DNA of 40,223 nucleotides from Arenicellales bacterium (lineage in GTDB: Bacteria; Pseudomonadota; Gammaproteobacteria; BMS3Bbin11): contig JARFQI010000071.1 of NCBI GenBank assembly GCA_029287855.1, positions 1 to 40,223 on the forward strand. Reading direction: 5' to 3'. The notes under the pieces were generated by a model. It had not been told where the DNA came from. It saw only the letters and a list, made by a program, of their open reading frames with translations, and ran no database searches. Positions 23,004 to 33,233 of the stretch are shown here, in pieces. Each line of letters starts with the position of its first letter. The stretch's first letter is position 1. The translations under genes and the position numbers were made by a program.

Positions 23004-24941
23004 TTACTTATTAGCCCTGTTCTCGACCAGGTGATCGACTACCGCCGGATCCGCTAATGTGGATGTATCGCCCAGGTTCTCTATCTCATTTTCTGCAACT
23101 TTACGCAGAATACGACGCATAATTTTTCCTGAGCGTGTTTTTGGCAGCCCCGGAGCCCATTGCAGAATATCAATAGTTGCTATCGGCCCGATTTCCTTAC
23201 GCACGAACACTACCAGCTCTTTCTTCAGATCATCAGACTCTTCAACCCCTGCCATAAGTGTTACATAGGCATAAATACCCTGGCCCTTGATGTCATGTGG
23301 ATATCCAACAACGGCGGCTTCAGCGACACTGCTGTGCAGAACCAGTGCTGATTCTATTTCTGCTGTACCAAGACGATGGCCGGAAACATTCAACACATCA
23401 TCAACACGGCCCGTTATCCAGTAATAACCATCCGCATCGCGGCGGCAACCGTCACCGGTGAAATAATAGCCCGGATAGGTAGTGAAATACGTATCAATAA
23501 ACCGCTGGTGATCACCATAGAGTGTACGCATCATACTTGGCCATGGTGCTTTCATCACCAGGTTACCAGAGCATTCGCCTTCCAAAACATTGCCCTGCTC
23601 ATCAACGATCTCAGGCTGGACACCGAAGAACGGCTTCGTAGCCGAACCGGGTTTCATATCTATCGCACCGGGTAGAGGGGTAATCAGATGCCCGCCTGTT
23701 TCAGTTTGCCACCAGGTATCAACAATCGGGCAGCGGGAATCACCAACCACATGGTAATACCATTCCCAGGCTTCCGGATTGATCGGTTCACCTACTGTTC
23801 CAAGCAACTTCAGACTGCTACGGGAAGTTGTCTTGACAAGTTCTTCACCGGAACGCATCAAGGCACGTATTGCCGTTGGTGCAGTATAGAATTGATTGAC
23901 CTGGTGCTTGTCGATCACCTGCCAGAATCGAGATGCATCCGGGTAGGTGGGAATACCTTCAAACATCAATGTCGTCGCACCATTCGCCAGTGGCCCATAG
24001 ACAATATAAGTATGACCTGTTACCCAGCCAATATCGGCGGTACACCAGTAAATATCACCATCATGATAATCAAAAACATATTTGTGCGTCATTGCTGCAA
24101 ACAGTAAATAGCCGCCGGTAGTATGTAGCACACCTTTTGGTTTACCGGTCGATCCAGATGTATACAGAATGAATAGAGGATCTTCAGCATCCATCTCTTC
24201 TGGGGGGCAATCTGTAGATGCTTCGGCCATCATTTCTTCGTACCAGACGTCCCTGCCTTCCTGCCAGGCAACATCACCACCAGTGCGCCGGACCACAACA
24301 CAGGTCTTGACGTTTGGGCACTCTGACAATGCCTTATCCGCATTGACTTTCAATGCTACAGACTTGCCACCACGCACGCCTTCATCAGCGGTGATAACTG
24401 TTTGGCAGTCAGAATCAAGTATGCGATCACGTAGCGAATCTGGTGAGAAACCACCAAATACAATGGAGTGTACTGCACCGATACGTGTACAGGCGAGCAT
24501 CGCAACCGCCGCTTCAGTAATCATAGGCATGTAGATGCAGACACGATCTCCCTTTTTAACACCACGCGACTTCAGCACATTGGAGAATTTACAGACATCT
24601 TCATATAGTTCGCGATAGGTAACCTTTTTATCCACTTCAGGATTATCCGCCTCCCACAGCAATGCCACCTGATCACCTCGTGTTTCTAAATGGCGATCCA
24701 GACAATTGTAGGAAACATTCAGCTTACCGCCTTCAAACCAGCGTATATCACCTTTTGTAAAATCAAATTCCTGAACCTTGCTCCAGGGCTTCATCCAGTC
24801 GAGGAATTCGTTTGCCTGATCTGCCCAGAATCCATCGGGGTCTTCAATCGATCGTTTATACATGGCCTCATACATCTCACTGGTGATGTGGGCATTTTTG
24901 GCAAATTCTTCGGGAACTGGGTATATTTTAGATTCAGACAT
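23004..24941 (-). CDS. acs: Acetyl-CoA synthetase
   Basis: This AMP-forming enzyme converts acetate, ATP and CoA to acetyl-CoA in the cytoplasm. The 645-residue length is typical. Visible motifs are the phosphate-binding loop [18 protein letters not shown], the acetate/AMP pocket [19 protein letters not shown], and [18 protein letters not shown]. The C-terminal [11 protein letters not shown] contains Lys606, the site that is reversibly acetylated in known Acs enzymes. AAGGAG sits 7 bases before the ATG. It lies next to, and on the same strand as, the exonuclease/CBS genes and the ActP-like symporter, so the neighbourhood is an acetate-use block. Confidence 0.97.
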
Positions 24942-25060
24942 GGTGATCTCCTTTGGGACTGTTTTATTATTCAGTGTGGCTCTAGTTATTCATCTAATCT
25001 ATTCGATGTTGCTTGAACTTGCCGAGTGTGTCAAAGGCTGATAGCAATAAAAATGAAAAT

Positions 25061-25747
25061 TTACGATAAAAACTGCTTCAGAGGCAAATTCTGACTACTA
25101 TCCATGTGCCCTATCTGAGCCTGTAACAACTCTGCAGTAGCAATTGCATCACTCAAAGCATTATGCGCCTGGTACATTGGTAAACCATAGCGTTTTCGCA
25201 GATTGAAAAGGCGAAGATCACCCTGTTCTATCTCCTTGTTTCGCCGCTCAAGCCATTGCTTTGCTATCCTCATCGTATCAATAACAGGAAAACGTGGACT
25301 TACTCCGTACAACTTCTGGCAGGCCTGGGTTAAAAAAGTAAGTTCTATCTTTGCATGATGGGCAACCATTATCTTGCCTGCAAGAGCATGCAGCAGGTTG
25401 CCCACCACCTCATCGAGTGGCAGGCCAGCGGAAACGTCATCATCGGTTATTTTATGGATGACTACACTTTGCTCTGTCAGTGATCCGCCGAGCTTTACCA
25501 GTTCATGGCGGGCCGTTGAAAGCTGAATCATGCCATCTTCGATAGCAACATAACCAGCGCTAACAATATGATCCTTGCTCGCATCGAGCCCGCTTGTTTC
25601 AAAATCCAGTGATAACAGAGGCACTGCATGAATATCCCTGCTTCGATCAATCAGCGGGGCTGATAGATACTCACTGATGGCGCCTTCCGGTGCGGCTTCA
25701 AGCATCTTCCTGCGCCTCGATTCTGCACTAAAAAGAAAGTCAAACAT
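25061..25747 (-). CDS. DnaQ-like DEDDh 3'-5' exonuclease
   Basis: The 228-residue protein carries the DEDDh exonuclease fold: ExoI motif LLSLDFETSGLD with Asp48 and Glu50, ExoII in IMVAHHAKIELTFL, and ExoIII HNALSDAIATAEL with the His and last Asp. It resembles the epsilon subunit of DNA polymerase III, but the short N-terminal helix region and gene context are those of the family linked to cNMP/CBS/DUF294 proteins. Its ATG shares one base with the stop codon of the upstream gene, so the two are translationally coupled. The biological substrate is unknown. Confidence 0.9.
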   Translation of the reverse strand: MFDFLFSAESRRRKMLEAAPEGAISEYLSAPLIDRSRDIHAVPLLSLDFETSGLDASKDHIVSAGYVAIEDGMIQLSTARHELVKLGGSLTEQSVVIHKITDDDVSAGLPLDEVVGNLLHALAGKIMVAHHAKIELTFLTQACQKLYGVSPRFPVIDTMRIAKQWLERRNKEIEQGDLRLFNLRKRYGLPMYQAHNALSDAIATAELLQAQIGHMDSSQNLPLKQFLS

Positions 25748-27609
25748 CAGCCTATACGATCCGCATGGTAACGCTGAGACAGTGATTCCTGCATCGTCTG
25801 AATGACCTTGAACGCATCTCTTAAGTGCGCCCGCTCAAGCCTCGACAATTGTTTCGGAGATAAAAAATTATCCGCTTTTTCTCCTTTTTTGATTTGTGCC
25901 GCCTGGTGCTCGATTCTTAGCTCGCCGATAAACTCATAGGCATCAAGAAGATTCGCAGCCCCATCCTTACTTAAAGATGGAGTCCCGGCAGCCTGTTTAA
26001 GGCGATCAATGGTACTCACCGCGGTAAGCCCTTCTGCCAGCGCATAAATCCTGGCCAGGTCTATAATTGGCACAATGCCGTTATGTTTCAGATCCAGTGT
26101 ATGTTTGTGTTCACCGTCGTCAATTAAGACAAAATCACGGAAGAATCCTAGCGGGGTCCTATGATGTAAAGCATTAACAGTCATCAGTGCAAGAAACAGC
26201 TGATTGTTTTTTGTCAGTTTGGATATTTTTTTCTGAATTTTGGTCAGTAGTTTTTTTTCTCCGTAAATCACACGGATGTCAAAGAAAATACTCGATAACA
26301 TTAGTGATTTTGGCTTCGGAGTATTGATCCACTTAGTAAAATAACCGGTCCAGACCTCTTGCGTCTGGCACCATTCCGGATTCATCGCCATGGCGTTGCC
26401 AGGACAATAAATAAAGCCACAGGCATCCAGACCGCCGCAAACATATTCAGCGAGTTGACTGAACCACCCGGCATCCTCAGGCTTCATCTCATTCGAGATG
26501 ATCAGGCCATTATCCTGGTCTGAATGAGAAGACTGCTCACGCCGGGCCTGTGACCCTGCTGCAACCCAGGCAAAGGGGACCGGCGCCGGTCCAAATTTCA
26601 TTTCTGCTAACTCAATCAGTCGTCGTGTGATTGCACTGCTGACAGCCGTTACCGCCCTGCCAACATGCTCCGCAGACCCTCCTGTGCTGACAATCTGCAA
26701 CTGCAGGTCAGGAATCATCTTACTGACTTCTGCTAAAGCTTCAACCGTCTCGGCACGACTTATTGAGCGGGTGATATGAACGGCATTTTTTCCCTCCTGC
26801 CGGATCAGGTCGGTTGCCGTAACAATACCCATAGGTTTTCCATCATCAATGACAGGTAGATGGTGAAAATTCTTGCGCGTCATCACCATCAGCGCATCAA
26901 ATGCCAGTGAATTGCTGCTCATGTGTATCGGATCAGCAGTCATGATGGCACTTACCAGAGAGTCAGGTGACAGTCCCTTTGCCAGGCAACGCGATCTAAT
27001 ATCGCGGTCAGTAATGATTCCTGCAAGTTTTCCTGCATCTGTAATAAGCAATGACGAAACGCCTTCTTCAGTCATTTTAACCGCCGCTTCATAAATTGAT
27101 GAATCATGCTCAATATCGATAATGTCTTCGCTTAATAGCTGACTCAACGGTGTGTTCATAAGCGTAGCGGTCTGTGACGCCTTTTGCTGTGAACTCCTTA
27201 CTGCATCATTCAATCTTCTATGGGGAGTATCTTTAAGAAATGCGACTACCTCAGGGTGCTTTGCAACGATATCAAACAGCACGCTGCAGGGAACAGAATA
27301 AACCAGGGTATCTTCTGTGGTCCTGGCTTCGAAAGTATTACGCCCTTCGTCTACACAGAAAGTGGTACATAATTCACCTTCAGTCAGCATGCCGTAGAGT
27401 TCATTGCCTGCGGTATAGAGTGACACTGAACCCTGCCGGATAACAAATAAAGATGAAGGGCTTTCGGTATCTACCGGCAGGGCGTTGCCTCTTCTTATAT
27501 ATCGAATCCCAATTTTACGCACAAGACTATTCAAAGCCTCTTCCGACAGTAAATCAAACGGTGGAACCTCTGCAAGGAAATCACGAATTTCCTGTAACTC
27601 TATTTCCAT
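25747..27609 (-). CDS. cNMP-binding, CBS and DUF294 nucleotidyltransferase-like signalling protein
   Basis: The 620-residue cytoplasmic protein has an N-terminal cyclic-nucleotide-binding domain (about 15-125), a pair of CBS domains (about 150-275; GVSSLLITDAGKLAGIITDRD and a second copy ending MGIVTATDLIR), a DUF294 nucleotidyltransferase domain (about 290-440), and a DUF294 C-terminal helical domain to residue 610. The transferase has GSQARREQ and SDQDNGLI, matching the G-S-x-A-R-x-E and D-x-D metal pattern of GlnD-like enzymes. It may modify a protein in response to nucleotide signals. Synteny with acetate transport and Acs suggests that pathway. The stop overlaps the exonuclease start (TGATG), and its own ATG overlaps the stop of the upstream gene (TAATG). 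Confidence 0.92.
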   Translation of the reverse strand: MEIELQEIRDFLAEVPPFDLLSEEALNSLVRKIGIRYIRRGNALPVDTESPSSLFVIRQGSVSLYTAGNELYGMLTEGELCTTFCVDEGRNTFEARTTEDTLVYSVPCSVLFDIVAKHPEVVAFLKDTPHRRLNDAVRSSQQKASQTATLMNTPLSQLLSEDIIDIEHDSSIYEAAVKMTEEGVSSLLITDAGKLAGIITDRDIRSRCLAKGLSPDSLVSAIMTADPIHMSSNSLAFDALMVMTRKNFHHLPVIDDGKPMGIVTATDLIRQEGKNAVHITRSISRAETVEALAEVSKMIPDLQLQIVSTGGSAEHVGRAVTAVSSAITRRLIELAEMKFGPAPVPFAWVAAGSQARREQSSHSDQDNGLIISNEMKPEDAGWFSQLAEYVCGGLDACGFIYCPGNAMAMNPEWCQTQEVWTGYFTKWINTPKPKSLMLSSIFFDIRVIYGEKKLLTKIQKKISKLTKNNQLFLALMTVNALHHRTPLGFFRDFVLIDDGEHKHTLDLKHNGIVPIIDLARIYALAEGLTAVSTIDRLKQAAGTPSLSKDGAANLLDAYEFIGELRIEHQAAQIKKGEKADNFLSPKQLSRLERAHLRDAFKVIQTMQESLSQRYHADRIG

Positions 27610-28085
27610 TAATTAGCCCCCCATGGCCCGGAATGTGATATTGGGAATTCTGCATAATACCTTTTCTGGTCTGTTTCCAATGCAATACGTATTAACAATT
27701 GATCATCGGCTTTAAGATTACTCAGCTGCCTGAGAGGTGCTATCCAGTGAGAAGAATCTGTAACTCTTTGCATCACCATACCTTGAGTTACTCTATCCGA
27801 TTGTGCAAGACCCATTGTTACACCGTCGAGATCACGATTTGAATCAATAAAAAAATGCCTGTCATCGGATTTCAAAGTAATCACCAGCCCGTCTTTTTTC
27901 AACATACAGGGCTCTTCTGGCATCCTGCAGTCTGACGCGAGTTTTAATTCATGGGCAACAGTGTTTTGCGCCTCAGAAGTCAGCAGTTCCTCTTCTTTAG
28001 ACGACTGGTAGAAATCAGCGGCGATAAAACCACCAATGAGTAAAAATGGAGCGATGATGGTTGCGGCTTTAATATGGGGTGTCAT
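27609..28085 (-). CDS. Hypothetical membrane-anchored protein
   Basis: I do not recognise this 158-residue protein. It has one N-terminal hydrophobic segment (about residues 7-25, IIAPFLLIGGFIAADFY) that should anchor it in the inner membrane with the rest in the periplasm. Two cysteines 7 residues apart (CRMPEEPC) could form a disulfide. The mature part is soluble, with mixed strands. Its TAA overlaps the ATG of the cNMP/CBS/DUF294 gene, so the three genes down to the exonuclease form one coupled unit. It might supply a membrane signal to that unit; this is only inferred from position. Confidence 0.78.
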   Translation of the reverse strand: MTPHIKAATIIAPFLLIGGFIAADFYQSSKEEELLTSEAQNTVAHELKLASDCRMPEEPCMLKKDGLVITLKSDDRHFFIDSNRDLDGVTMGLAQSDRVTQGMVMQRVTDSSHWIAPLRQLSNLKADDQLLIRIALETDQKRYYAEFPISHSGPWGAN

Positions 28086-28099
28086 GGAATAACGCTTTA

Positions 28100-28120
28100 A
28101 GTTTTAAGTTTTAAGTTTTT
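28100..28120 (+). repeat. Heptamer tandem repeat AGTTTT(A/T), three copies
   Basis: The units AGTTTTA, AGTTTTA and AGTTTTT follow each other without gaps, 15 bases upstream of the anchored-protein gene. A related two-copy array (AGTTTTC) occurs after cyaY. The repeated spacing of seven bases is unlikely to be ordinary AT-richness. Confidence 0.7.
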
Positions 28121-28121
28121 C

Positions 28122-28143
28122 ATGCTTCATATAGCTGAAGCAT
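28122..28143. repeat. 8-bp inverted repeat beside the heptamer array
   Basis: ATGCTTCA and TGAAGCAT are perfect reverse complements around a 6-base loop. It lies in the leader of the anchored-protein operon and could be an operator or hairpin. Confidence 0.5.
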
Positions 28144-28147
28144 AAAT

Positions 28148-28175
28148 GAAAAAGGCTCCCGAATGGGAGCCTTTT
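28148..28175 (-). terminator. Intrinsic terminator of the symporter operon
   Basis: A perfect 11-base stem (AAAAGGCTCCC with GGGAGCCTTTT) closes a 4-base loop, with a T-run on the minus strand. It lies 18 bases after the symporter stop codon and could work in both directions. Confidence 0.93.
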
Positions 28176-28192
28176 AATATCAACCGGGTAAA

Positions 28193-29974
28193 TTAATGTC
28201 CGGTTGCAGAGCCTGACCCAATAGGGACACGAATGTCTTCTACCAGATGCTGAATATGCTCTGGGGGTGGTGCTGTCATCTTTGACACAATAATTGCTAC
28301 GGTAAAGTTGACTACGGCACCTACTGCACCAAAGGCATTTGGTGAAATACCAAAGAACCAGTTAGCTCCCATGTCACCAAGGAAATCGGTGCCTGGGATA
28401 AACATGATGCCTTTGTGCTGGAACACATAGAGCATGGTTACACTAATGCCGGAAATCATTCCCCAGATTGCACCTGCACGGTTCATCTTCTTATTGAAGA
28501 TACCCATCATCAGGGCAGGGAAGATCGATGCAGCGGCGAGACCAAATGCAATGGCCACTGTTCCTGCGGCAAAATCTGGTGGATGCAGTCCGAAGTAACC
28601 CGCCATCCCGATAGCGCCTGCCATCGCAATTCGACCTGCCATCAATTCACTTTTCTCTGAGATAGATGGCATAAAGATACCCTTCAGCAGATCATGTGAG
28701 ATTGATGATGCAATGGCCAGCAACAAACCAGCAGCTGTTGATAGCGCTGCAGCAAGTCCACCGGCAACGACCAGAGCGATTACCCAGTTTGGTAGTTTGG
28801 CAATTTCCGGATTGGCAAGTACCATGATGTCACGGTCAACCTTGACCATTTCATTACCTTTCCAGCCAAATGACTCTGCCTTGGCAGCAAACTCTTCGTT
28901 TTTGTCATTATAATACTGGATCCTGCCGTCACCGTTTTTATCTTCATACTGCAGCAAACCGGTCGTTTCCCAGTTTTTCATCCACTGCGGACGTGCTTCG
29001 TAGCTGAGGTTTCCTTCAGGCGTACCAACTTCGCCTACCTGGATGGTTTCCATCAGGTTCAGACGAGCCATGGCGCCAACAGCTGGAGCAGTCGTATAAA
29101 GAATCGCAATAAAGACAAGCGCCCAGCCTGCAGTAGAACGGGCATCTTTTACTTTAGGAACGGTAAAGAAACGCATAATGACATGTGGCAGGCCGGCGGT
29201 ACCGATCATCAGTGTCAGGGTATAGACAAACATATTCAGTTTGCTGCCCATTACCTGCGTCGTGTACTGCTTAAAGCCAAGGTCAGTGACTACCAGGTCC
29301 AGCTTGTCCAGCATAGACATCGAACCATCTACCATATTAGAGCCAAGTCCGATCTGTGGCAATGCCACACCGGTCAAATGCATGGAAATAAATACAGCCG
29401 GAACTGTATAGGCAAAAATAAGGATGACGTACTGTGCTATCTGCGTATAGGTGATACCTTTCATGCCACCCATCACAGAATAGATGAAGACGATACCCAT
29501 ACCAATGTATAGGCCGGTGTCATAATCCGTTTCAAGGAAACGTGAAAAGGCAACGCCAATACCTTTCATCTGGCCGATAACATATGTTATCGATGCAAGA
29601 ATCAGACAGATAACGGCAACCACGCGTGCAGTTCTGGAATAGTAACGTTCTCCAATAAACTCCGGCACTGTGAACTTTCCGAATTTCCGCAAATATGGTG
29701 CTAGCAACATGGCCAGCAGTACATAGCCGCCGGTCCAGCCCATCAGGAATACAGATGCGCCATATCCATTGAAGGCGATGAGTCCTGCCATGGAAATAAA
29801 TGATGCGGCGGACATCCAGTCAGCTGCTGTGGCCATACCGTTTGCAACAGGATGAACACCCTTGCCTGCCACATAAAACTCACCGGTAGTGGCCGCTCTT
29901 GCCCAGAAGGCAATGCCGATATACACCGCAAAGGTGAATCCGACAACCGTGTAGGTTAATGTTTGAAGATCCAT
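28193..29974 (-). CDS. Sodium:solute symporter large subunit, VC_2705/ActP-like
   Basis: The 593-residue inner-membrane protein belongs to the SSS family, with about 13 membrane helices and the family motif region GGMKGITYTQIAQY. Pairing with a DUF4212 small subunit puts it in the VC_2705-type subfamily; the neighbouring acs makes acetate or a similar short carboxylate the likely substrate. An unusual hydrophilic loop near residues 330-375 holds DKNGDGRIQYYN (345-356), which fits the first nine positions of an EF-hand calcium loop but ends in Asn then Asp rather than Glu. The start lies 9 bases after the DUF4212 gene, with AAGGGGG upstream. Confidence 0.93.
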   Translation of the reverse strand: MDLQTLTYTVVGFTFAVYIGIAFWARAATTGEFYVAGKGVHPVANGMATAADWMSAASFISMAGLIAFNGYGASVFLMGWTGGYVLLAMLLAPYLRKFGKFTVPEFIGERYYSRTARVVAVICLILASITYVIGQMKGIGVAFSRFLETDYDTGLYIGMGIVFIYSVMGGMKGITYTQIAQYVILIFAYTVPAVFISMHLTGVALPQIGLGSNMVDGSMSMLDKLDLVVTDLGFKQYTTQVMGSKLNMFVYTLTLMIGTAGLPHVIMRFFTVPKVKDARSTAGWALVFIAILYTTAPAVGAMARLNLMETIQVGEVGTPEGNLSYEARPQWMKNWETTGLLQYEDKNGDGRIQYYNDKNEEFAAKAESFGWKGNEMVKVDRDIMVLANPEIAKLPNWVIALVVAGGLAAALSTAAGLLLAIASSISHDLLKGIFMPSISEKSELMAGRIAMAGAIGMAGYFGLHPPDFAAGTVAIAFGLAAASIFPALMMGIFNKKMNRAGAIWGMISGISVTMLYVFQHKGIMFIPGTDFLGDMGANWFFGISPNAFGAVGAVVNFTVAIIVSKMTAPPPEHIQHLVEDIRVPIGSGSATGH

Positions 29975-29983
29975 AATGCCCCC

Positions 29984-30235
29984 TTAACCTTCTTCTACGT
30001 TGAATTTCTTATCGAGCTGATTCATACGCCAGGCGTAGAAGAAGATCAAAAAGACAAACGTGTATATCGAACCCTGTTGTGCAAACCAGAAACCCAGTTT
30101 ATAACCACCCAGGCTGATGTTATTCAATGGTTCAGCTAGAATGATGCCGAACCCGAATGACACAATGAACCAGACGACAAGACATCCGGCAACCAGGCTT
30201 ATATTAGCCTTCCAGTACGCCTCTCTATCACTCAT
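29984..30235 (-). CDS. Symporter small subunit (DUF4212)
   Basis: This 83-residue membrane protein has two helices (about 12-34 and 48-70) and the family start MSDREAYWKANISLV. It ends in the basic-aromatic motif YAWRMNQLDKKF. Such proteins always precede an SSS symporter and are taken as its small subunit. The start at 30235 is chosen for the family N-terminus and the GAGAGGG ribosome site; an open frame reaches further upstream to 30292 without support. Confidence 0.93.
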   Translation of the reverse strand: MSDREAYWKANISLVAGCLVVWFIVSFGFGIILAEPLNNISLGGYKLGFWFAQQGSIYTFVFLIFFYAWRMNQLDKKFNVEEG

Positions 30236-30586
30236 AATATTATCCCTCTCTTGGTGCAGATGTTGTAAATACAGTAGTAAAAACTGTATCAAATAATAAA
30301 GATTATTTTTTATTAATCCTGTTTTACAGGATCAGCCGATTATAACTACTTATACCCAAATAACAATTGAAAATACGAATGAGTTAGCACCCTGAAATTT
30401 TCTGGGTTATGCCATCAGCAGAATCAAGTCGCTGAAAAAGCGCCTTGATATTACGTGCCACGTCTTATTCTACACAGCCACTTGAGACTTAATAATAGCA
30501 GGCGTAACCTGCACTCATCGAAAACTATAGTCACGCTTAATTAGTGAATCTGAAAACAACTTTTCACTCATGGCAACGGACAGAAA
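30236..30586. other. Intergenic region, 351 bases
   Basis: This stretch should contain the promoter of the symporter operon. A small hairpin ATCCTG-TTTTA-CAGGAT (30316-30332) is the only structure I noticed. No gene or RNA is supported. Confidence 0.4.
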
Positions 30587-31106
30587 GCACTACTAAAGCT
30601 GGTTCCGACTAGAATGCCATGTGATTCAAGCCTCGAGGAAATCATCAGGGCAATGCAGATTTTTCATGTTTAAACTGGTGAAATCTTGTTTATTCAGAGC
30701 GGTAATGAATCAGAAGCGGTTTATCTACTCCAAGGTGCAGTAGAATAACTTCCGGCAACCAGACTGGACCACGAGTTATCACATCAAATAACAATATGGC
30801 CCGCTATGCAATAGCTCAGTTAAAACCACCCATTCTACTACCAACAACACCCTCTACCACTACACGGAGTGACTATAATATCCTTGATCATATTGCCTTG
30901 ATGGACGATGGCAGTGTTATCAAAGTCATCGAGATGAATGCCGATGAAGATGCGGAGTAGGTGTTTAATCTCCTTTCTTCGCCCACTTTTGCCAAATTAC
31001 CACCAGCGAATGCTAATCAAACGTTAGCGCGTATGGTGAAATAGATGTTAAGGCGAACATGCTCATCATCACAATTCCGCTCCAGCTCATCTCTTTGACT
31101 CACTAG
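30587..31106 (+). pseudogene. Decayed gene for a protein with two cNMP-binding domains
   Basis: Three plus-strand frames must be joined to read the protein. The first segment gives LLKLVP, LEEIIRAMQIFHV, a stop (TAA 30671-30673), then TGEILFIQSGNE and AVYLLQGAVE: a textbook cyclic-nucleotide-binding beta-roll start. A different frame carries ARYAIAQLKPP, then a TAG (30958-30960) where a Trp would be expected, then LLSSPTFAKLPPANANQTL and an ARM, the start of a second cNMP domain. A third frame adds EIDVKANMLIIT. Two in-frame stops, two frameshifts and no start signal make it clearly dead. Living relatives are two-cNMP-domain proteins, sometimes with rhodanese or other partners. Confidence 0.72.
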
Positions 31107-31307
31107 GCGCATTTATATCAACGCTGCAGAATTACAGTTATCAACACCAGCAAATAGCTGTAGAAAGCATTTATAGTTCTTATTTGCTATCATAGGCGGA
31201 TGAACTCCCGCCAAATTACAAAGTATAGATAGTGTAGAGTTCATGGCCGTGGTGACTGACGAAGGCACCACATCTCCTAAAAATCCGAAATAACAGGAGG
31301 TCTTTTG

Positions 31308-31775
31308 ATGAAAAGACTTACACATTTGTTTGCAGCAGCAGTGATTGTCAGTGGTCTTACCCTGGTGCCTGTCGCTGATTCAGAAGCATGGTTCAATATG
31401 AATGGGCCATGGAATAACGGCTCTGGCTGGGGCGGCGGCCCGTGGAATAGTGGCTATGGTGGTGGCCCCTGGGGCGGCGGCCCGTGGAATAGTGGCTATG
31501 GTGGTGGCCCCTGGGGCGGCGGCGCACCATGGAATAGCGGCTGGGGCGGTGGACCTAACTGGGGTGGTGGTGGAATGCCGTGGAACAGCGGTTATGGTGG
31601 AAATCGCTACTACGGCGGTGCCCCTTACTACGGTGGCGGTGCTCCTTACTACGGTGGCGACTACGGTGGCGGCGCACCTTATTACGGCGGATACCCGAAC
31701 TACGGTGGAGATGTACCCGCTCCTGCTCCTGCACCTGAAGATCCTAAATACCCGGCTGTGACGCCTGTAGAGTAA
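31308..31775 (+). CDS. Secreted Gly/Trp/Tyr-rich repeat protein, sulfur-globule-protein-like
   Basis: The 155-residue product has a signal peptide of about 26 residues (ending DSEA before WFNMNGPW). It is followed by low-complexity repeats of Gly with Trp, Tyr, Pro, Asn and Ser: WGGGPWNSGYGGGP occurs twice exactly, followed by APYYGGG-type units and a Pro-rich acidic tail. The composition and export signal resemble the structural sulfur globule proteins of purple and other sulfur bacteria (Gly/Tyr-rich, exported), but Gly-rich secreted proteins of other types look similar. AGGAGG 7 bases upstream of the ATG predicts strong translation, and a strong terminator follows, as expected for an abundant structural protein. 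Confidence 0.75.
   Translation: MKRLTHLFAAAVIVSGLTLVPVADSEAWFNMNGPWNNGSGWGGGPWNSGYGGGPWGGGPWNSGYGGGPWGGGAPWNSGWGGGPNWGGGGMPWNSGYGGNRYYGGAPYYGGGAPYYGGDYGGGAPYYGGYPNYGGDVPAPAPAPEDPKYPAVTPVE
31428..31511 (+). repeat. Perfect 42-bp tandem duplication inside the Gly-rich gene
   Basis: Units 31428-31469 and 31470-31511 are identical and each encodes 14 residues. A third, diverged copy follows. Identity at synonymous positions suggests a recent duplication. Confidence 0.92.
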
Positions 31776-31806
31776 TTCCGCCTAAACAGGAACAAAGTAG
31801 CAACAA

Positions 31807-31834
31807 AAAGGGTCGCAAAATGCGGCCCTTTTTT
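31807..31834 (+). terminator. Bidirectional intrinsic terminator
   Basis: AAAGGGTCGCA pairs with TGCGGCCCTTT (one T-G wobble) around a 3-base loop, followed by a run of six T on the plus strand and preceded by five A. It ends the Gly-rich gene and probably also the TolC-like gene arriving from the other side. Confidence 0.93.
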
Positions 31835-31892
31835 CTGCTTTAGTGATCGCCTTGAAACATTCCGGTCAGCCCTTGAAATCTGAAGGCTTTAT

Positions 31893-33233
31893 TCATTCCA
31901 ACCAGCTATTAACGACCTCCAGGTCATTTACACTGAGGTTTCCTGCAACAAGTTTAAGCTGCAGGGTGCTGAGCATGAACTGATACTTTGCTTGTATGTA
32001 ATCTCTCTCCGAACCGTATAGATCACGCACAGCATCCAGCACTTCAACATTTGTATTGACGCCTGCCTGAAAGCCTTCACGCTTCGCTTCAACCGTACTG
32101 TTGCCTGCCTTTACCGCACTCTTCAGGGCCTGCAGACGACTGATGCCGCTTTTTAATGCCTGGTAGGCGGACCGTGATTGTCTGTCAACATTACGTCTTA
32201 TGCCCTCCTGATCTTGCAGCGCCGCCTGGTATAGTGCCCTGGCCTCTTTTGTCCCGGCGACGACACCCCAGCCCTGGATCAGAGGTATGCCAAGCTGCAA
32301 TCCGACGTCTGTATTTTCAGAAACCCGGCCTGAACCGCTCAGACTTCCATCAGCATCAATATTTGAGTGCCTAGCGACCAGGTCCAGCGTCGGCAGATGA
32401 CCTGCCTTTATACGGGCAACCTCTCTATCCGCAATTTCAACAGTTCGCTGCGCTGCCAGATAGTCCAGATTATTATTTAGCGAAGTCTCCACCCAGTAAT
32501 CAAGGTTGTCCGGCGACGGCGGGTCAAGGGGCGGTTTATCTTTCGCAATCACCTTTAACTCGCCGGGTTCTTGTCCGGTAAGTTCTTTTAAAGCAACCAG
32601 TGCATCGCGTAGAGAGAAATCAGCTTCAATGACGTTAGTCACTGCCAGACTATATCTAGATTCAGTGGCATAAAGGTTTGTTACCGTACCCAGCCCCACA
32701 TTCAGACGCTCTTTATCCAGTTCCAGTTGCTCAGCCAGGGCGTTTTTCTCAGCCTCAGAAACCCTGAGATTCTCCTGTGCGACCAGTGCCAGACCATAGA
32801 CACTAGCAACGCGATAAATTAATTCCTGCGTAGCCGCACTGAGGTCAAAAGCCGCCTTCTCGACATTAATTTTTGCCTGTTGATAGACTTGCCATGCGGG
32901 GGCGTCAAATAATGCCTGGCTAAATTCAACTGACCAGCTTTCAATATTGAAATCCGCTTCGCCATCCAGGCCAGGAATATCATCATTGCTGCTATTTTTC
33001 TGGTTTCGTCTATTGGTTCCTGCATCCGCACCAAGAAATGGCAGAAGCCCCGCTCTACCGACACCAAGGCGGGCATTTTCAGCATCATAAATATTAATTG
33101 CAGCTCTGTATTTCGGGTCCTGTTCGGCCGCCAGCTGATAGGTCGACATAATGTCATCAGACCAGGCATTTAGAGAGGCGAGCATAAGCGCCGGCAACAT
33201 CATCCTGCAGCCTATAATCCTTCTTTTTTTCAT
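31893..33233 (-). CDS. TolC family outer-membrane channel protein
   Basis: The 446-residue product has a signal peptide (about residues 1-25) and the TolC opening motif STYQLAAEQDPKYRAA. Two homologous halves of long helices and barrel strands follow, with YRVASVYGLALVAQENL at the end of the first repeat and a similar YQALKSGISRLQALKSAV in the second. The late motif GVNTNVEVLDAVRDLYGSE (here split) is diagnostic for type I secretion/efflux TolC proteins. It would form the outer-membrane exit duct for a secretion or efflux pump. No inner-membrane pump or adaptor gene is next to it. Length is normal. Confidence 0.93.
   Translation of the reverse strand: MKKRRIIGCRMMLPALMLASLNAWSDDIMSTYQLAAEQDPKYRAAINIYDAENARLGVGRAGLLPFLGADAGTNRRNQKNSSNDDIPGLDGEADFNIESWSVEFSQALFDAPAWQVYQQAKINVEKAAFDLSAATQELIYRVASVYGLALVAQENLRVSEAEKNALAEQLELDKERLNVGLGTVTNLYATESRYSLAVTNVIEADFSLRDALVALKELTGQEPGELKVIAKDKPPLDPPSPDNLDYWVETSLNNNLDYLAAQRTVEIADREVARIKAGHLPTLDLVARHSNIDADGSLSGSGRVSENTDVGLQLGIPLIQGWGVVAGTKEARALYQAALQDQEGIRRNVDRQSRSAYQALKSGISRLQALKSAVKAGNSTVEAKREGFQAGVNTNVEVLDAVRDLYGSERDYIQAKYQFMLSTLQLKLVAGNLSVNDLEVVNSWLE

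What the first reader, a model, noticed from the sequence alone, without database searches (positions are those of the whole stretch)
31308..31775. Gly/Trp/Tyr-rich exported repeat protein, candidate sulfur globule or surface protein
It has a strong ribosome site, a signal peptide, exact 14-residue repeats and a strong terminator, indicating a highly expressed structural protein. Composition resembles sulfur globule proteins, which would imply intracellular periplasm-derived sulfur storage. The high Trp content of the first half is less usual for that group.
Basis: partly seen in the sequence, partly recalled or inferred. Interest (0 to 1): 0.5.

Follow-up and report, generated by a model that had tools for sequence, protein, structure and literature searches.

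The report
Likely sulfur-globule coat protein, tryptophan-rich
This gene encodes a small exported glycine-, tryptophan- and tyrosine-rich repeat protein that most likely helps coat sulfur storage granules in an uncultured sulfur-oxidising bacterium; it is a variant of a known kind of protein rather than something fundamentally new.

Summary
In detail: window 31308-31775 (+) encodes a 155-residue protein with an AGGAGGT ribosome site, a signal peptide, a perfect 42-bp/14-residue repeat and a strong terminator. The source genome (2.33 Mb draft, 91% complete; a same-genus genome is labelled an Arenicellales MAG) encodes SoxB. One contig ends at a dsrN-dsrR-like pair, so dsrAB, absent from the draft but present in relatives, probably lie in an assembly gap. 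A protein passing Pfam's cut-off for PF17228, Sulphur globule protein, is also encoded. The window protein has homologues in all 7 genus genomes and the 1 other family genome searched. A profile built from it found 10 genomes outside the model in a 369-genome class sample; all 10 carry soxB or dsrA, and 5 are reached through Pfam SGP members. The window protein itself is not a PF17228 member, and sequence similarity outside the genus is weak. Best reading: a Trp-rich envelope protein of periplasmic sulfur globules, working with an SgpA/B-type partner. Localisation and function are inferred, not shown. New variant of a known kind.

The parts
31308..31775 (+). Gly/Pro/Tyr/Trp-rich exported repeat protein, 155 aa (P0001), candidate sulfur globule envelope protein
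   Evidence: homologues in 7 of 7 genus genomes, own included
31308..31388 (+). signal peptide (residues 1-27), predicted cleavage SEA|W
   Evidence: read by eye; conserved alignment; no signal-peptide program was used
31427..31523 (+). 42-bp perfect tandem repeat, 2.3 copies (14 residues)
31607..31659 (+). 21-bp imperfect tandem repeat (YYGGAPYYGGGAPYYGG)
31295..31301 (+). ribosome binding site AGGAGGT
   Evidence: AGGAGGT in 4 of 7 genus sequences, AAGGAGA in 3
31183..31194 (+). candidate extended -10 promoter element (TTTGCTATCATA), kept as TTTGnTATnnTA in 7 of 7 genus sequences
   Evidence: read by eye; not reported by the sigma-70 scan
31805..31833 (+). intrinsic terminator

Best explanation
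P0001 is exported to the periplasm by the Sec route, cleaved before Trp28, and there serves as a structural subunit of the protein envelope around stored zero-valent sulfur globules in a chemotrophic sulfur oxidiser of the Arenicellales. It would act together with the SgpA/B-type protein (PF17228) encoded on contig C86. Regularly spaced Gly, Pro and aromatic residues would give a flexible, sticky coat that binds the hydrophobic sulfur surface and its partners. Sulfur deposited by Sox (and perhaps by sulfide oxidation, not searched for here) would later be fed to the rDsr pathway. Shown here: gene, signal-peptide-like N-terminus, repeats, translation and termination signals, conservation, soxB and an SGP-family protein in the same genome, co-occurrence with sulfur genes across genomes. 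Inferred: export, localisation on globules, envelope function, partner, dsrAB in the gap.
For: SoxB in the genome. dsrN-dsrR-like genes at the very end of contig C40, where the related G002 dsr cluster continues. PF17228 protein on C86, 51.3 bits against cut-off 26.7. Among the candidates found by the A2 profile and tested, PF17228 is passed in 5 of the 8 genomes of the family (G000, G002, G004, G005, G007). P0001 homologue in 7 of 7 genus and 1 of 1 other family genomes, with conserved neighbours. The A1 profile finds 10 genomes not used in the model: soxB in 9, dsrA in 9, either in 10 of 10, against 162 of 369 overall. 6 of the 13 non-genus places are PF17228 members above cut-off. Features named in print for this class: cleavable signal peptide, regularly spaced prolines, no conserved domain (PMC7356093 section 18; PMC10386293 passages); Trp as first mature residue and own terminator as in SgpD (PMC10386293 passages).
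Against: P0001 and the other 8 members of A1 match no Pfam family at E up to 1, so PF17228 does not recognise them. A model of 11 mature SGP proteins does not lift the 8 P0001-family members clear of their own shuffles: 1 to 104 of 200 shuffles score as well (P0001: 12 of 200). The P0001-family model has low composition-corrected scores on relatives (best 34.9, 16.3, 15.7, 12.2 bits, the other 15 under 10 and 8 of them negative) and does not single out the genome's own SGP (12 of 200 shuffles as good); convergence of Gly-rich repeats is possible. dsrA, dsrB, DsrH (PF04077) and soxC are not found in the draft. No SGP candidate turned up in G001 or G006, and the G003 candidate tested is below cut-off. 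Two genus genomes have soxC, and SoxCD-bearing organisms need not store sulfur from thiosulfate (recalled). No observation of globules in this organism is known to me. No sulfur gene was recognised in the window around it (by eye for most genes).
Confidence: 0.66

Rival explanations
1. A cell-surface or matrix protein (biofilm, sheath, adhesion) whose Gly/Trp/Tyr repeats give cohesion outside the outer membrane, in an organism that also happens to oxidise sulfur.
For: Signal peptide, low complexity, repeat number that varies between species, as in many surface proteins (recalled); a TolC-family gene lies next door, convergent.
Against: All 15 genomes matched by the profile in the 369-genome sample have soxB or dsrA, and 6 of 13 non-genus matches are Pfam SGP members. 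No anchor, lipobox or sorting domain seen (by eye; no Pfam match). No tolC match between P0001 and the M48 gene in the stretches of G004, G002 and G006, so that neighbour is not a fixed partner.
Confidence: 0.18
2. A protein that binds or nucleates extracellular sulfur (globules excreted or deposited on the outside), rather than coating periplasmic globules.
For: The same sulfur gene set would be expected; the sequence does not tell periplasm from outside.
Against: The Pfam SGP partner and the dsr genes point to internal storage by analogy with Chromatiaceae (PMC3368242 and PMC10386293 passages).
Confidence: 0.1
3. A convergent low-complexity exported protein of other use (metal binding, envelope stress), with similarity to SGP due only to Gly-rich composition.
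For: Weak composition-corrected scores; the SGP model does not pick P0001.
Against: Residue order matters: the P0001 model scores 15 of 19 relatives above all 200 of their shuffles. The mature chain has no Cys or His and 2 Met, which makes metal binding unlikely.
Confidence: 0.06

Closest known systems
PF17228 Sulphur globule protein (SgpA/SgpB type)
   Same: Small exported proteins, signal peptide ending before W or F, Gly/Asn/Tyr/Trp repeats, Pro-rich tail; the P0001-derived profile retrieves members; one member in the same genome. That SgpA and SgpB belong to this Pfam family is recalled.
   Different: P0001 lacks the GD-x-GD-x-F-x-M-S-F-x-G-rich core common in the SGP members aligned here (by eye) and does not match the Pfam model.
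SgpC of Allochromatium vinosum (Alvin_1325)
   Same: A second kind of small envelope protein beside SgpA/B (PMC10386293 passages).
   Different: No SgpC sequence could be fetched, so homology is untested, and whether SgpC is in PF17228 was not tested; P0001 is larger (mature 12.9 kDa).
SgpD of A. vinosum (Alvin_2515)
   Same: Own terminator and transcription unit, Trp at the mature N-terminus, regularly spaced Pro (PMC10386293 passages).
   Different: SgpD is predicted to have two long helices; P0001 shows only the signal-peptide helix in a low-confidence single-sequence model. Sequences not compared.
Beggiatoa leptomitoformis 15-kDa envelope protein ALG67575.1
   Same: Signal peptide, regularly spaced prolines, no conserved domain (PMC7356093 section 18).
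   Different: Sequence not compared.

Membership tests
PF17228 Sulphur globule protein | Score over the Pfam gathering cut-off (26.7 bits) | tested here: not met
   0 Pfam families at E up to 1 for P0001 and for all 9 A1 members
PF17228 Sulphur globule protein | GDxxGDxxFxMSFxG-rich core (motif read by eye from SGP-type sequences) | tested here: not met
   absent from P0001
Sulfur globule envelope proteins (functional class) | Cleavable N-terminal export signal | tested here: met
   read by eye, conserved in the genus; no prediction program used, cleavage not shown
Sulfur globule envelope proteins (functional class) | Repetitive sequence with regularly spaced prolines/aromatics, no conserved domain | tested here: met
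Sulfur globule envelope proteins (functional class) | Encoded in a sulfur-oxidising genome (sox, dsr) | tested here: met
   SoxB; dsrN-dsrR-like contig end, dsrAB in relatives; dsrAB not in the draft itself
Sulfur globule envelope proteins (functional class) | Physically present in the envelope of sulfur globules | not testable with these tools
   needs proteomics or microscopy
SgpC | Sequence homology to Alvin_1325 | not testable with these tools
   no named A. vinosum sequence was reached; the one genome-contig scan returned an Arenicellales MAG and a Sulfuritalea MAG

The most novel reading that the evidence does not exclude
P0001 founds a separate, Trp-rich (PWNxGYGGG / APYYGGG) family of sulfur globule envelope proteins, outside Pfam SGP, used with an SgpA/B-type partner by uncultured Arenicellales sulfur oxidisers, with looser relatives in scattered other gammaproteobacteria, so that a sulfur-storing lifestyle can be read from genomes in a group where I found no description of it.
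Probability: 0.43. Interest if true: 0.42.

Novelty: new variant of a known kind. Interest (0 to 1): 0.33.

Why it matters
If true, it gives a sequence marker for sulfur storage that Pfam and NCBIfam do not cover, predicts intracellular sulfur globules in an uncultured Arenicellales genus, and offers a simple repeat chemistry (PWNxGYGGG and APYYGGG) for asking how globule coats assemble. No paper in the held open-access library holds both 'Arenicellales' and 'sulfur globule'; other wordings and other literature were not searched.

Tried and rejected
Pfam and NCBIfam on P0001: nothing. Plasmid collection by protein with P0001 and with the genome's SGP protein (L061): no match. Structure prediction of P0001 alone: mean pLDDT 49.1, only the signal-peptide helix, uninformative. 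Rfam on 30250-31900: one sub-threshold 'Prion_pknot' match (25.4 bits against 39, E 0.055) on the repeat itself, taken as chance. Sigma-70 scan: nothing above shuffles. TolC neighbour as functional partner: rejected, no tolC match in that place in three genus genomes. A genome lacking Dsr altogether: thought unlikely because contig C40 (17155 b) breaks one base beyond the start codon of the dsrN-like gene; a real loss of dsrAB remains possible. A conserved upstream mini-ORF: looked for by eye, frame not kept. Two paper searches with broad terms gave mostly unrelated papers, one gave none.

Full report
What is there. Window 31308-31775 (+) encodes a 155-residue protein. An AGGAGGT ribosome site lies at 31295-31301. 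The first 27 residues read as a signal peptide ending SEA before Trp28 (by eye). The mature 128 residues are 35% Gly, 15% Pro, 12% Tyr, 8.6% Trp and 8.6% Asn, with no Cys. The first half is built of GGGPWNSGY-like units, including a perfect 42-bp repeat (2.3 copies, 100% match), and the second half of APYYGGG-like units. The tail is VPAPAPAPEDPKYPAVTPVE. A strong intrinsic terminator follows (fold z -4.24, 0 of 200 shuffles as stable). Upstream, an extended -10-like element TTTGnTATnnTA is kept in 7 of 7 genus sequences (by eye), which would give a leader of about 108 nt; the sigma-70 scan did not report it. The gene looks like a one-gene unit between a VC_2705-type sodium/solute symporter pair and tolC, all on the other strand.

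Conservation. P0001 alone finds homologues (E up to 0.01) in 9 of 95 genomes: the 7 genus genomes searched (own included), the 1 other genome of the family, and G041 of another family. The genus sequences share the signal peptide and the mature start WFNM, while repeat number and type vary. In five genus relatives (G001, G002, G003, G004, G006) P0001 lies with acs or actP on one side and M48, the secretin-like gene, lysA and cyaY on the other (argH too where the contig reaches); tolC lies between P0001 and M48 in G001 and G003 but not in G002, G004 and G006. In G005 and G007 only tolC (and M48 in G007) was recovered beside it.

Sulfur metabolism of the organism. SoxB is present at 872.5 bits against a cut-off of 550, beside pilT/pilU-like genes (named by eye). 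DsrA, DsrB, DsrH (PF04077) and SoxC were not found in the draft. However, dsrA is in the 3 other genus genomes of the class sample (G001, G002, G004), and dsrB is over the cut-off in G002, G004, G005 and G007 of the family. The G002 dsr cluster has dsrA, B, E, F, H, C and K over their cut-offs, a DsrL-like protein by position, and DsrJ- and DsrP-like proteins below their cut-offs. The stretch after it matches the last bases of contig C40 of the window genome. C40 ends one base beyond the start codon of a 461-aa CobB-type protein, the DsrN position, followed by an IscA-like protein, the DsrR position. The A. vinosum order is dsrABEFHCMKLJOPNRS (PMC3368242 passages). The simplest reading is that dsrAB lie in an assembly gap. 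On the other flank, contig C58 matches part of the G002 stretch but no match continues into the cluster. SoxC is over the cut-off in G002 and G004 only, of the 9 genomes asked.

Link to sulfur globule proteins. The A1 profile (P0001, six genus homologues, G007 and G041) was run over 369 genomes of the class: 15 match at E up to 1e-5. Five of these (G000, G001, G002, G004, G041) were in the model; the other 10 are G022, G140, G143, G193, G210, G213, G223, G250, G297 and G347. SoxB (E up to 1e-140) is in 140 of 369, DsrA (E up to 1e-90) in 117 of 369, either in 162. Of the 10 independent genomes, 9 have SoxB (not G213), 9 DsrA (not G140; partial, below the cut-off, in G193 and G213) and 10 at least one. 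With G041 included and the genus excluded, 11 of 11 against 158 of 365 gives Fisher p 8e-5. This test treats genomes as independent, which they are not. Of the 13 non-genus places, 6 are PF17228 members over Pfam's cut-off and 7 match no Pfam family. The 6 genomes that hold a Pfam-unmatched place all carry soxB or dsrA (p 0.006).

The window genome itself encodes a PF17228 protein on contig C86 (177 aa, 51.3 bits against 26.7) and a weaker relative on C114 (21.4 bits, below cut-off). Proteins over the cut-off are also in G002 (27.2), G004 (29.7), G005 (41.2) and G007 (41.6); second candidates in G002 and G004 and the G003 candidate tested fall below it. None was found in G001 or G006 by the A2 profile, and one G003 candidate (L062) was not assessed.

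How far the homology goes. With signal peptides removed and composition correction on, a model of the mature P0001 family (8 sequences) scores 15 of 19 relatives above all 200 of their shuffles. Scores are low: 34.9 for G223, 16.3 for G210, 15.7 for L031 of G041, 12.2 for G140, the other 15 under 10, 8 of them negative. The genome's own SGP is not singled out (12 of 200 shuffles as good). The reverse model, from 11 SGP proteins, does not recognise P0001 (12 of 200) or its close homologues (1 to 104 of 200). So P0001 shares the SGP style, signal peptide and N-terminal repeat pattern, but is not a PF17228 member, and common descent with SGP is unproven.

Mechanism. Sulfur globule proteins of A. 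vinosum are exported hydrophobic proteins that coat periplasmic globules; [quoted passage not shown] In Beggiatoa leptomitoformis a transposon in the envelope-protein gene goes with loss of sulfur storage and lithotrophy, and thiosulfate raises its expression tenfold (PMC7356093, section 18 and passages). Sulfur globule proteins are also followed as storage markers in the Riftia symbiont (PMC7787665 passages), and small globules in Thiorhodovibrio have been put down to a lack of sgpC (PMC10609205 passages). By analogy P0001 is inferred to be one envelope subunit working with the C86 SGP. G041 shows a similar pairing of a P0001-like small protein (L031) with PF17228 proteins; likeness to SgpC is by size and composition only.

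Verdict. It is a new variant of a known kind. Function remains to be shown. On rechecking the calls I lowered the main confidence and the novel-case probability slightly, because the reverse SGP model fails for all eight P0001-family members and not for P0001 alone.

Noticed in passing
window 30590-31041 (+): Decayed remnant, with in-frame stops and a change of frame, of a 348-356 aa protein with cNMP-binding (PF00027) and rhodanese (PF00581) domains. It is intact directly upstream of the P0001 homologue in G004 (L019:4621-5667) and beside the symporter small subunit in G006 (L025:2793-3863).
   Followed up: partly
window 23004-30292 (-): Acetyl-CoA synthetase-like and exonuclease-like genes (named by eye), a CBS/DUF294 nucleotidyltransferase, and a VC_2705-type sodium/solute symporter with its small subunit: perhaps an acetate-uptake block, suggesting mixotrophy.
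   Followed up: no
G000:C114:920-1618 (L072): A 232-aa ORF (start uncertain) with an SGP-like core (GDFEFDMKIKFKAKGKGNG), 21.4 bits to PF17228, below cut-off, beside metal-type ABC transport genes (named by eye).
   Followed up: partly
L069:5926-6339: Sulfuritalea MAG: 137-aa GGGPWGGDAPWDR repeat protein with a signal-peptide-like start, lying between two nifE/nifN-like genes (by eye) on the other strand; no Pfam match.
   Followed up: no
G004:C97 and G004:C76: A same-genus genome carries two dsrAB sets; G002 and G004 also carry soxC together with dsr.
   Followed up: no
G041 (unnamed, contig of 3446950 b): Five strong SGP-type matches plus one P0001-like protein and one weak match in one genome; two of the five SGP-type stretches hold a stop codon.
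   Followed up: no
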